DNA from: a virus | Strand: one strand, 5' to 3' | DNA length: 64,000 nucleotides | IMG/VR virus record: IMGVR_UViG_3300020167_000001 | Span: 1 to 64,000 of that record | In this document: positions 10,373 through 61,801 of the stretch, piece by piece | Numbering within the stretch: the first letter of the stretch is position 1 | How the letters are laid out: each line of letters opens with the position of its first letter | Program-made: the position numbers and the translations under genes | The notes under the pieces: generated by a model | Database searches by the model: none | Seen by the model: the letters and a program-made list of their open reading frames with translations, nothing else | What the model was told of the DNA's origin: nothing

Positions 10373-10699
10373 TTAATATAAATCTTCTGAAAATAATCCT
10401 AATCTAGGATTACCTTCACCTGTAATAATTTGATTAGCAGCTTTTGCAATCATTAGAGCTTCTAATCTTGTTACAAACCTGTTAGTATTAGTAATAAAGC
10501 CTTGTTCTTCAGTTCTAACTATTTTTAAAGCTTCTTCTGAATAAGGGAATCCTAATATTTTAGAATTAATATGAATACAATTATGGTGTCTTCTACCACA
10601 AACTACATATCCTTCTGTAATATTAATAACATTAATGCTATCTGTACTACCATCATTATAATAATTAGCAGCACATAATATAAATTCTGATTTTGACAT
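10373..10699 (-). CDS. Hypothetical protein, 108 aa
   Basis: Soluble alpha/beta protein (KSEFILCAANYYNDG, VVCGRRHHNCIHI, RLEALMIAKAANQIITGEG). The middle segment with RRHHNCIH might bind a metal, but no known domain is evident. Lies directly downstream of the tRNA-like gene on the same strand; the short gap has no other gene. Confidence 0.55.
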   Translation of the reverse strand: MSKSEFILCAANYYNDGSTDSINVINITEGYVVCGRRHHNCIHINSKILGFPYSEEALKIVRTEEQGFITNTNRFVTRLEALMIAKAANQIITGEGNPRLGLFSEDLY

Positions 10700-10727
10700 A
10701 ATATGTGTTTTAATAATTAATAATTAG

Positions 10728-10855
10728 TACCAAGAAGAAGATTTGAACTCCTGACCTTTCCAGTTTTGGCCTATACAGCTACTCAAAAACTAAGTCTTAA
10801 ATTAGTTAAAACTGTACCCAAAGTAGAATGCTCTACCGGACTGAGCTATCTTGGT
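10728..10855 (-). tRNA. tRNA with a 54-nt insertion in the anticodon loop
   Basis: Minus strand: acceptor ACCAAGA/TCTTGGT (7 perfect bp, A73, no encoded CCA), T8-A9, D arm GCTC-AGTCCGGTA-GAGC, A26, anticodon stem TTCTA/TGGAA, 5-nt variable loop AGGTC, T arm AGGAG-TTCAAAT-CTTCT. Only the anticodon loop departs from canon: it is 61 nt instead of 7, starting CTTTGG and ending CCAAAAC. The extra sequence folds on itself (TTTGG/CCAAA, TACAG/CTGTA, AACTAA/TTAGTT), so an intron is inferred. Splice points are not determinable by eye. If the mature loop is CTTTG plus AC, the anticodon is UUG (Gln). The insertion is far too short for a group I intron. Confidence 0.75.
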
Positions 10856-10858
10856 GTA

Positions 10859-10945
10859 AAGGTAAATTGTACTGAGGCTCTTAACTAGTCAGCACAGTTG
10901 ATACAACAATTTAAGAGTAATATCCATATCAACTTTATTTACCTT
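10859..10945 (-). ncRNA. H-type pseudoknot element enclosed by a 9-bp helix
   Basis: AAGGTAAAT (10859-10867) pairs with ATTTACCTT (10937-10945). Inside, two perfect 7-bp helices interleave: CTCTTAA (10878-10884) with TTAAGAG (10911-10917), and GTTGATA (10897-10903) with TATCAAC (10927-10933). It lies 3 nt from the tRNA and 10 nt from the stop of the 57-aa gene, so it may be a processing signal or an independent structured RNA. Confidence 0.5.
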
Positions 10946-10955
10946 ATGATTTAAA

Positions 10956-11129
10956 TCACTTAATAGTATCTGAATTATGACCTAACTCAGCTTTTCTTAA
11001 GTCATATGCATTTTTCAAGAACTCTGGATGAGTTCTAGCATATTCTGCTTCTTCTATGGCCGGGATTGATATGACAAATATCATAAGTCCTGATATGACC
11101 AGTAATAATATAATGGCTGTTGCTCTCAT
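10956..11129 (-). CDS. Small membrane-anchored protein, 57 aa
   Basis: ATG at 11129, TGA at 10956. The N-terminal 25 residues are a signal anchor (AIILLLVISGLMIFVISIP), followed by a charged soluble tail (EEAEYARTHPEFLKNAYDLR). The start overlaps the stop of the upstream 120-aa membrane protein by four bases (ATGA), implying coupled translation and probably a membrane partnership. Confidence 0.6.
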   Translation of the reverse strand: MRATAIILLLVISGLMIFVISIPAIEEAEYARTHPEFLKNAYDLRKAELGHNSDTIK

Positions 11130-11488
11130 GTGAATAAATAATAGATGAATAATGAGTAAATTATTAAGGGTACAATGATAAACAATATTACTAATATTGC
11201 CACATGGTCAATCCCCCATCTATTAAAATATCTTGAAAAGTTTACTATCTTCTCGGAGACAGTATCAAAAAATGTATCATGGTTTACTACACTGAGCAAT
11301 AAGCCTAATACTCCTAGAAATGTTAACTCAATAAGTGGTGTTCCAAATATTACATCTAACAATGTGCACCAGGAGAATGGGATTATGACAAACCAAATGG
11401 TAAACTCTATAATTTCAAGAGGTAATCCGGTTTCCCTACCGAGAAAATTAATCATAGTAACAATCTTGCTAAATATAAATCTGAACAT
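11126..11488 (-). CDS. Membrane protein with three predicted TM helices, 120 aa
   Basis: Hydrophobic segments around residues 26-42 (IIEFTIWFVIIPFSWC), 50-65 and 95-118 (VAILVILFIIVPLIIYSLFI). No known family. ATGA overlap with the 57-aa membrane protein downstream. Preceded by about 700 nt of structured non-coding sequence (11489-12210). Confidence 0.6.
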   Translation of the reverse strand: MFRFIFSKIVTMINFLGRETGLPLEIIEFTIWFVIIPFSWCTLLDVIFGTPLIELTFLGVLGLLLSVVNHDTFFDTVSEKIVNFSRYFNRWGIDHVAILVILFIIVPLIIYSLFIYYLFT

Positions 11489-50054: not shown

Positions 50055-51548
50055 ATGAAACCATTAAATATAGATAAATCAGGATGTTCTAATACATCAT
50101 CAAATTGTGTAGTTTGGCAAGGACCTGATATTCCTTGTATTGCTCTATGTAAAGGAGATTCTATTACAGAAGTGGTGTATAAATTAGCAACTGAATTATG
50201 CACAATCATGGATACTTTTGACATGAATGAGTATGATTTAAAATGCTTTGCCGGTGGTGCTTGTAAGCCAGAGACATTTAAAGAATTTATTCAACTTGTT
50301 ATTAACAAGATTTGCTATGTTCAAGAATGTTCAGGTTGTTTAAATAGTTGTGACCCATGTAATACTACGGTGACTCCAACTGTTCCTGTAGTACCGCCTC
50401 CATCTGGAGGAGATCCTATTGTTCCAATAGCACCAGCATTTAGATATGTTAACCAATTTGGTGATATAGTAACTACTATGACTACTAGTGAATATGCTGT
50501 AACTATTGGTAACCGTGTTTCAAATATTGTAACTACTATTAGTACTATAAATGCCACATTAGTAAATCATAATACTAGAATTACTAATTTAGAAAATGCT
50601 CCAGCACCTGTCTATCCTACTCCTGTAATGACTCCGGTTTGTGTAACAGCCTCTATACCTACAGATTCATTTACAGTATTAACAGCATTAGAACAACAAT
50701 TTTGTGAGTTAAGAATTGCAACAGGTACTCCTAATAATATTTTTACAAATATTGGCAATCAACCTGCAAATTTAGGAGCTACTCCAACTTTAAATAATCC
50801 ATTAGCTCTTATTAGTTCATTACCTGGTTTTAACAATACAGTAGCTAATGAAGCTGATTCTATTGGTAATCTTTGGGTTGTAGTTTCAGATATGAGATTA
50901 GCCATTAAAAATATTATTGATAATTATTTACCAAGTGATTGTGCAGCTATAGGAATGACCATATTTGCAAGTTATGCTCCTACAACATTAACAATTTTTA
51001 TTAATGGTACCATACCTGGTACATTCTCAAATACATTTCCTGCAGGAACTATATTTACTATAACTGATGATTTTGGTGCTAGTATGAGAGTTACTATTGA
51101 TATACCAAGTATGATTAATACAATGGGAGGGTTTCCTGTTAATATATCAGGTAGTGGTTTAAATACAACTTCTAATTTAACAATTAATGCTAGTCCTAGC
51201 TTTACAAGTACTACTACTGGATCACAGTGTCAATCAACATTACAATTTGTAGTTGTTAATCAAGCTAATTGTGCAGTAGTTACTTATGGTACAACTACAA
51301 CAGCTCAGATTGATTACACGTATACTACAGCAGCTATTACAGCAACATATAGTATTGAGCTTTGGGATGCTTTAACAAATACATTCTTAGGAGGATATAG
51401 TGTTGCTAATACTATAGTTCAAGTAGTATCAGGTTCATTCTTAGCAGCTTTCCCTGTATTACCATTAACTCAATACAAATTAAGATTAGTAGTAACAGTA
51501 AATTCAGTAGATACTTATTGTGACTTTACTTTAGTAACAACCACATAA
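50055..51548 (+). CDS. Cysteine-containing virion protein with shared N-terminal module, 497 aa
   Basis: N-terminus NCVVWQGPDIPCIALCKGDS, ITEVVYKLATELCTIMDTFD is a module typical of Bacteroidota phage virion proteins and is seen again in the next protein (CVYYTGTGNDCLSIETGQTV). The body is beta/Thr-rich with fibre-like repeats (NRVSNIVTTISTINATLVNH). Probably part of the tail or head appendages. Confidence 0.6.
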   Translation: MKPLNIDKSGCSNTSSNCVVWQGPDIPCIALCKGDSITEVVYKLATELCTIMDTFDMNEYDLKCFAGGACKPETFKEFIQLVINKICYVQECSGCLNSCDPCNTTVTPTVPVVPPPSGGDPIVPIAPAFRYVNQFGDIVTTMTTSEYAVTIGNRVSNIVTTISTINATLVNHNTRITNLENAPAPVYPTPVMTPVCVTASIPTDSFTVLTALEQQFCELRIATGTPNNIFTNIGNQPANLGATPTLNNPLALISSLPGFNNTVANEADSIGNLWVVVSDMRLAIKNIIDNYLPSDCAAIGMTIFASYAPTTLTIFINGTIPGTFSNTFPAGTIFTITDDFGASMRVTIDIPSMINTMGGFPVNISGSGLNTTSNLTINASPSFTSTTTGSQCQSTLQFVVVNQANCAVVTYGTTTTAQIDYTYTTAAITATYSIELWDALTNTFLGGYSVANTIVQVVSGSFLAAFPVLPLTQYKLRLVVTVNSVDTYCDFTLVTTT

Positions 51549-61081: not shown

Positions 61082-61801
61082 ATGAAAAGATATTGTATAT
61101 ATAAAATAACTAGTCCTTCAGGAAAATTATATATTGGACAAACCTGTAATTTTTCTAAAAGGTATAATGCTTATAAAACTAGCAATGCAAAAAGTCAACC
61201 AAAACTTAATTACAGTTTTTTAAAGTATGGTATTGAAAATCATAAATTTGAAATAATAGTAGAAAATTTAGATAGTCATGAAGTAAATCCTATGGAAAAT
61301 TTTTATATAAAGTATTATAATTGTGTAACACTTGGTCTCAATTGTTCTTATGATGCTTTATCACCTATGAAAAATAGAAAACATTCTATTGAAACTAAAA
61401 ATAAAATGTCTTTACAAAGAAAAGGTAAGAGTTTTGGTATTAGAACTACACAACATATAGAAAATTTAAAAAAAGCTATACAAAAAACTTTTATAGATGG
61501 TAGAATAGGTGCTAGAAAAGGTGTTGTTTTATCTGTAGAGACTAAAGATAAACTTAAAAAAGTTCAATTAGGTAGAATACATTCTGATAATCATAAATTA
61601 AAAGTAAGTTTAAATCATGGAAGCAGAAAATTATCTATGGATCAAGTTCTTGATATAAAAAATAGATTATTAAATGGAGAAAAAAGAATGAAACTTGTAA
61701 AAGAATTTAAAGTATCTTATACAACAATTAGAGATATTTATACAGGCCAAAGATCTGATTTAATGTTAGCTGATATTAAAAACCTTTTATCACCTAGATA
61801 A
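61082..61801 (+). CDS. GIY-YIG homing endonuclease, 239 aa
   Basis: YCIYKITSPSGKLYIGQTCN near the start is the GIY-YIG catalytic module (both Tyr, with downstream Arg and Glu). A Lys-rich middle contains repeated DNA-binding modules (HSIETKNKMSLQRKGKSFG and LSVETKDKLKKVQLGR), then a helix-turn-helix (QVLDIKNRLLNGEKRMKLVK, SYTTIRDIYTGQ). Its last residues LADIKNLLSPR copy the muzzle protein's C-terminus LSDVKNLLSPR, and its start ATGAAAAG copies the start of the next gene, so it is inserted exactly at that junction. Confidence 0.85.
   Translation: MKRYCIYKITSPSGKLYIGQTCNFSKRYNAYKTSNAKSQPKLNYSFLKYGIENHKFEIIVENLDSHEVNPMENFYIKYYNCVTLGLNCSYDALSPMKNRKHSIETKNKMSLQRKGKSFGIRTTQHIENLKKAIQKTFIDGRIGARKGVVLSVETKDKLKKVQLGRIHSDNHKLKVSLNHGSRKLSMDQVLDIKNRLLNGEKRMKLVKEFKVSYTTIRDIYTGQRSDLMLADIKNLLSPR

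What the first reader, a model, noticed from the sequence alone, without database searches (positions are those of the whole stretch)
10728..10855. Canonical tRNA body with a 54-nt insertion in the anticodon loop
All tRNA arms and invariant positions are present, but the anticodon loop is 61 nt long and the insertion folds on itself. It is too short for a group I or II intron, and bacterial or phage tRNAs are not known for archaeal-like introns of this size. The inner helices with bulges resemble a bulge-helix-bulge. Splicing would need an enzyme the phage or host supplies.
Basis: partly seen in the sequence, partly recalled or inferred. Interest (0 to 1): 0.8.

Follow-up and report, generated by a model that had tools for sequence, protein, structure and literature searches.

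The report
Phage tRNA with 54-base anticodon insert
A crAss-like phage carries a tRNA gene, intact except that 54 extra bases sit where it should read the genetic code; the insert looks like a tiny intron of a kind reported before in giant phages but never explained, and a database survey made here shows such inserts are common in phage tRNA genes.

Summary
Minus strand 10728-10855 is a strong tRNA match (RF00005, 50.9 bits, E 5.8e-08) with all four stems paired and a 61-nt anticodon loop, 54 nt longer than normal. The window lies in an 85-kb virus record with crAss-like capsid, portal and terminase genes. The insert forms a rod-like hairpin whose 3' end pairs with the anticodon. It is not a strict bulge-helix-bulge and matches no Rfam intron.

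I found no homologue of this tRNA in IMG/VR. A survey with gapped patterns gave 102 insert-bearing tRNA candidates; in 50, deleting one block restores a normal anticodon arm, against 0.9 expected by chance. One subfamily, an undescribed 40-50-nt hairpin followed by ACAGCRA, covaries at all 7 pairs and recurs in several tRNA isotypes; the window insert does not belong to it.

Best reading (about 0.5): an intron-like insert removed after transcription by a host- or phage-supplied nuclease and RNA ligase, giving a Gln(UUG)- or Pro(UGG)-type tRNA. Splicing is inferred, not shown. No ligase gene was found in this partial genome.

The parts
10728..10855 (-). tRNA gene with inserted anticodon loop (128 nt; acceptor 10849-10855/10729-10735, D arm 10830-10846, anticodon stem 10824-10828/10758-10762, variable loop 10753-10757, T arm 10736-10752, discriminator A 10728)
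   Evidence: cmscan RF00005 50.9 bits; ARAGORN intron mode
10765..10818 (-). 54-nt insert in the anticodon loop, drawn with the cut after position 36; cuts after 33-38 all give a 7-nt loop with U33, so the ends are uncertain by about 3 nt either way
   Evidence: cut-point solver and ARAGORN on spliced versions: Gln(TTG) for cuts after 36-38
10763..10823 (-). 61-nt anticodon loop folding as a rod: UUUGG/CCAAA helix (anticodon paired to the 3' end of the insert), AGG bulge, GUACAG/CUGUAU helix, inner hairpin AACUAA/UUAGUU
   Evidence: RNAfold; arm fold z -0.92, not significant alone
10859..10945 (-). structured intergenic RNA just upstream of the tRNA: three-way junction, 9-bp closing stem AAGGUAAAU/AUUUACCUU, two hairpins whose loops are complementary (CUCUUAA/UUAAGAG). 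Possibly co-transcribed leader; link to the tRNA unproven
   Evidence: RNAfold z -3.39, 1 of 200 shuffles as good; inverted repeats; no Rfam match
10373..10699 (-). 108-aa ORF downstream of the tRNA on the same strand, phrog_839 (unknown function); context only

Best explanation
A phage tRNA gene interrupted in its anticodon loop, at the canonical 36/37 to 37/38 place, by a 54-nt intron-like insert that is cut out after transcription and the halves rejoined, giving a working tRNA. Shown: the intact tRNA body, the position, the rod-like fold pairing anticodon with insert, and that similar inserts in other phage tRNAs can be deleted to give perfect tRNAs. Inferred: that excision happens, and that it is done in trans by an endonuclease plus an RNA ligase (RtcB type or T4 Rnl type) supplied by the host or by the part of the phage genome not in this record. 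The mature tRNA would read Gln CAA (anticodon UUG) on the simplest cut, or Pro CCA if its Pro(UGG)-like ancestry is kept.
For: tRNA match 50.9 bits despite the insert with every stem paired; a dead gene in a phage would be expected to drift. Deleting the insert leaves 5 bp plus a 7-nt loop with U33, and ARAGORN then calls tRNA-Gln. In IMG/VR 50 of 102 insert-bearing tRNA candidates can be repaired by one deletion versus 0.87 expected. Phage precedent in Lak. A relative by terminase (58% identity, L177 in G035) also has a tRNA with an insert of about 37 nt in the same loop. CAA is the main Gln codon in this phage, 30.8 per thousand against CAG 5.6.
Against: No transcript data. A singleton: no relative with the same tRNA in IMG/VR, so no test of conservation or covariation. 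No RtcB or RNA ligase in the 85-kb record or in the near relatives G005-G007 and G035 (a weak sub-threshold RNA-ligase match only in G016), and no canonical splicing motif. The acceptor stem A1-U72 and A73 fit neither Gln nor Pro identity rules well (general knowledge).
Confidence: 0.5

Rival explanations
1. A tRNA-like RNA that is never spliced: the long rod replaces the anticodon arm, and the RNA acts as a decoy or bait (for anticodon nucleases, tRNA-modifying or repair enzymes) or as a regulatory RNA.
For: Anticodon paired into the rod; no ligase in the record; in Flavobacterium a tRNA-Lys or tRNA-Arg with an arm insert lies near an RNA-repair gene set (RtcB with TatD, or Hen1 with an Rnl1-type ligase) beside an array of similar RNA elements, so arm-extended tRNAs in an RNA-repair setting exist.
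Against: U33 and a natural anticodon loop are kept; the large group of inserts with unique cuts that restore perfect arms with real anticodons is hard to explain unless they are removed.
Confidence: 0.25
2. A dying tRNA gene: a palindrome-rich fragment inserted by chance into a phage tRNA, non-functional.
For: Insert fold is not significant alone, singleton in the collections, tRNA region not syntenic in relatives.
Against: All stems intact; the insert sits at the one place where introns are tolerated; similar cases are widespread.
Confidence: 0.2
3. A true archaeal/eukaryal bulge-helix-bulge intron cut by an EndA-type endonuclease.
For: Canonical position near 37/38; size in range; the same pattern search in cellular genomes returns mainly archaea with such introns.
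Against: The bulge geometry is not met; a crAss-like phage is expected to infect bacteria, which generally lack EndA (general knowledge).
Confidence: 0.05

Closest known systems
tRNA introns of Lak megaphages (Devoto et al. 2019, PMC6784885)
   Same: Small, non-group-I/II inserts in phage tRNAs from a phage of Bacteroidota; mechanism unknown
   Different: Lak genomes carry 30-35 tRNAs and use code 15, and some Lak inserts may encode another tRNA; here the only tRNA found, standard code (all 15 genes checked stop in TAA), no nested tRNA seen
Archaeal/eukaryal bulge-helix-bulge tRNA introns
   Same: Position in the anticodon loop near 37/38, size of tens of nt, anticodon paired with the intron as in eukaryal pre-tRNAs
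   Different: No two opposed 3-nt bulges around a 4-bp helix
Group I introns in bacterial and phage tRNA anticodon loops
   Same: Same location
   Different: 54 nt against over 200 nt; no core, no Rfam match
Undescribed 'ACAGCRA' hairpin inserts found here
   Same: Small insert in the anticodon arm of phage tRNAs whose removal restores the tRNA
   Different: Different structure and often in the stem at 28/29 or 29/30; model R1 finds none in this genome

Membership tests
tRNA | Acceptor, D, anticodon and T stems with conserved nucleotides | tested here: met
   cmscan 50.9 bits, full-length match
tRNA | 7-nt anticodon loop in the primary transcript | tested here: not met
   61-nt loop (sequence)
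Bulge-helix-bulge intron | Insertion at or near 37/38 | tested here: inconclusive
   Cuts after 33-38 all work
Bulge-helix-bulge intron | Two 3-nt bulges on opposite strands separated by 4 bp | tested here: not met
   Fold of arm
Bulge-helix-bulge intron | EndA-type splicing endonuclease in the genome or host | not tested
   Host unknown; endonuclease family not searched
Group I / group II intron | Catalytic core recognised by covariance models | tested here: not met
   No Rfam match but tRNA at E<=1 in 10600-11130
Lak-type phage tRNA introns | Phage tRNA with a small extra sequence in the anticodon region of no known intron class | tested here: met
   description in PMC6784885
Lak-type phage tRNA introns | Insert identical across related genomes, intron-less alleles known | tested here: inconclusive
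   No homologue in IMG/VR
   Model R1 gives no match in G000 or G035 nor in L001/L177 at E<=5

The most novel reading that the evidence does not exclude
Phages, and some bacteria, share an unrecognised way of splicing miniature (25-55 nt) introns from tRNA anticodon arms, served by RNA-repair ligases; it includes at least one conserved structured intron family (hairpin plus ACAGCRA), and the window tRNA is one of its divergent substrates.
Probability: 0.35. Interest if true: 0.85.

Novelty: new member of a known kind. Interest (0 to 1): 0.55.

Why it matters
Bacteria and their phages are taught to splice tRNAs only with self-splicing ribozymes. Small inserts with no ribozyme core, which restore perfect tRNAs when deleted, would mean a protein-based or unknown RNA-based tRNA splicing route in the phage world, and could explain part of why phages carry RNA ligases. 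The window case alone is one example; the survey makes the question testable because it gives dozens of loci, some in cultured Flavobacterium species.

Tried and rejected
Exact and gapped patterns from this tRNA in IMG/VR: no match. blastn of 4 kb around the locus in the phage collection: no match; of the tRNA alone: mainly tRNA-Pro(UGG) genes of T4-like phages over the 5' half. Synteny: the neighbouring ORF has relatives, but none beside an insert-bearing tRNA. Near relatives by MCP and TerL mostly lack tRNAs. ARAGORN's Pro(TGG) call needs a mispaired arm and a huge variable loop and was not adopted. A tRNA-Ser call at 51054-51148 appears only in relaxed mode, inside a gene, with no cmscan support: rejected. 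Local blastn of the insert and of the upstream RNA against all fetched loci: nothing convincing. Lak long tRNAs (L230, L231) have arms I could not resolve with confidence. BHB and group I/II: rejected as above. Several survey candidates are overlapping or tandem tRNAs (e.g. L233, L252, L304, L533) or may be archaeal, and I did not trace every contig's host.

Full report
What is there. The window is 64 kb of an 85,020-base virus record. Its major head protein, portal and large terminase match PHROG head-and-packaging families, and the capsid protein is distantly related to the crAss-like csAssE-Sib, to Cellulophaga phages phi4:1 and phi17:2 and, best, to a Leptolyngbya phage (27% identity). The host is therefore likely but not certainly Bacteroidota. 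On the minus strand at 10728-10855 cmscan reports a tRNA with 50.9 bits and E 5.8e-08; no other RNA family reaches its threshold in the window, and no second tRNA was found in the whole record. ARAGORN misses it unless introns are allowed. Acceptor, D, T and anticodon stems all pair; the anticodon loop has 61 nt instead of 7.

The insert. The arm folds as a rod: anticodon stem, then UUUGG pairing with CCAAA near the 3' end of the insert, a 3-nt AGG bulge, GUACAG with CUGUAU, and an inner hairpin. The anticodon itself is paired with the insert. The fold energy is not better than that of shuffled sequence (z -0.92), so the fold alone proves nothing. A bulge-helix-bulge needs two 3-nt bulges on opposite strands around 4 bp; that is not what is seen. 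Nothing but tRNA matches Rfam in 10600-11130 even at E 1.

What the mature tRNA would be. Removing 54 nt with the cut anywhere after positions 33 to 38 leaves a 5-bp stem and a 7-nt loop with U33. The cuts after 36, 37 or 38 give anticodon UUG (Gln) and ARAGORN then calls tRNA-Gln. The 5' half, however, is most like tRNA-Pro(UGG) of T4-like phages (about 91% over 33 nt with one indel), so ancestry from a Pro tRNA with a shifted loop is possible. CAA is common in this phage and CAG rare. The isotype stays open.

Is it alone? No homologue of this exact tRNA was found in IMG/VR. A relative by terminase (58% identity, G035) has another tRNA with about 37 nt extra in the same loop (L177). Devoto et al. 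2019 already reported introns in Lak-phage tRNAs and called them enigmatic, and a 2026 survey reports intronic sequences in tRNAs of jumbo phages. So the kind is known and the mechanism is not.

Survey. 102 distinct candidates with paired acceptor and T stems came out. In 50, deleting one block gives 5 bp, U33 and a purine at 37; shuffled arms would give 0.87. Sixteen have the insert in the stem with only one or two possible cuts, mostly after 28 or 29, and real anticodons: Ile GAT, Pro TGG, Lys TTT, Thr GGT, Asn GTT and others. Twenty-six, the window included, have it in the loop. The same scan of cellular genomes gives mostly archaea, as expected for their known introns, but also Flavobacterium, Fluviicola, Nostoc and a Lachnospiraceae bacterium. 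Some IMG/VR hits may be archaeal or tandem-tRNA artefacts; I did not trace each contig.

A conserved subfamily. Among the arm inserts, one type has a 6-7-bp hairpin followed by ACAGCRA (or ACUGCAA). In a 14-sequence alignment all 7 pairs of the hairpin show changes on both sides, 93.9% of cells pair, and no shuffle reaches the covariation score. A covariance model built from inserts alone finds further copies in the same contigs, and most of these lie in other tRNA genes that ARAGORN recognises only after the element is removed, for instance tRNA-Thr(TGT) and tRNA-Phe(GAA). Rfam has no such family. The window insert is not a member, so this supports the general idea of phage tRNA introns, not the identity of this one.

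Enzymes. RtcB was found in all 8 bacterial genomes checked that carry such tRNAs (5 of 10 bacterial controls have it; the 8 are not independent) and in one jumbo phage. RNA ligase domains were found above the family cut-off in 12 of 35 records for PF09414 and 4 of 35 for PF09511, without a matched control set of phages. In two Flavobacterium genomes the insert-bearing tRNA lies about 3 kb from RtcB; in a third, RNA-repair genes of the Hen1 and Rnl1 type lie beside it. The window record and its nearest relatives have none, but the record is a fragment. A host-supplied ligase is therefore assumed, not shown.

Conclusion. Observation confirmed; the intron idea is plausible and now better supported by analogy; the bulge-helix-bulge label is not met; the claim of no phage precedent is wrong. 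The most likely mechanism is post-transcriptional excision in trans; the main rivals are an unspliced tRNA-like decoy and a dying gene.

Noticed in passing
L236:10281, L267, L284, L311, L324, L325, L332:2504-2547, L340, L350, L535, L570, L449 and others: Undescribed 40-50-nt element (hairpin plus ACAGCRA) inside anticodon arms of phage tRNAs of many isotypes; all 7 hairpin pairs covary, no Rfam family, deletion restores tRNAs.
   Followed up: partly
L480:8700-9300, L481:7870-8440, L482:5030-5620, L446 near 2139: Flavobacterium/Fluviicola locus: tRNA-Lys or tRNA-Arg with a 41-45-nt stem insert, followed by an array of elements GGUCAA-helix-UACUUC-...-AUUAC, some enclosing T-arm-like or permuted tRNA pieces, upstream of an uncharacterised protein of about 745 aa; RtcB and TatD, or Hen1 and Rnl1-type ligase, alongside in the three Flavobacterium loci. 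Might be Y-RNA-like.
   Followed up: partly
window 10859-10945 (-): Strongly structured three-way-junction RNA with complementary hairpin loops, directly upstream of the tRNA; z -3.39, no Rfam match.
   Followed up: partly
L294, L491, L248, L485, L339, L554 (anticodon-loop inserts): Inserts that hold a T-arm-like hairpin and an acceptor-like stem, like a small tRNA nested in the anticodon loop, recalling the nested tRNA reported for Lak phages.
   Followed up: no
L441, L375 (Nostoc, Iningainema), L261 (427-kb phage contig that encodes RtcB): tRNA anticodon-arm inserts of 52-54 nt sharing GGGUUAUC or a near match at the 3' end.
   Followed up: no
window 61082-61801 (+): ORF that begins like a GIY-YIG homing endonuclease and ends in LADIKNLLSPR, nearly the same as the end of the preceding 1711-aa gene (LSDVKNLLSPR): looks like an insertion duplicating the end of its target gene.
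   Followed up: no
L173-L176, L180, L182: Related phages carry a tmRNA close to a tRNA-Met or tRNA-like gene, with tag peptides such as ANMNKVFSLIREEVAVAA.
   Followed up: no
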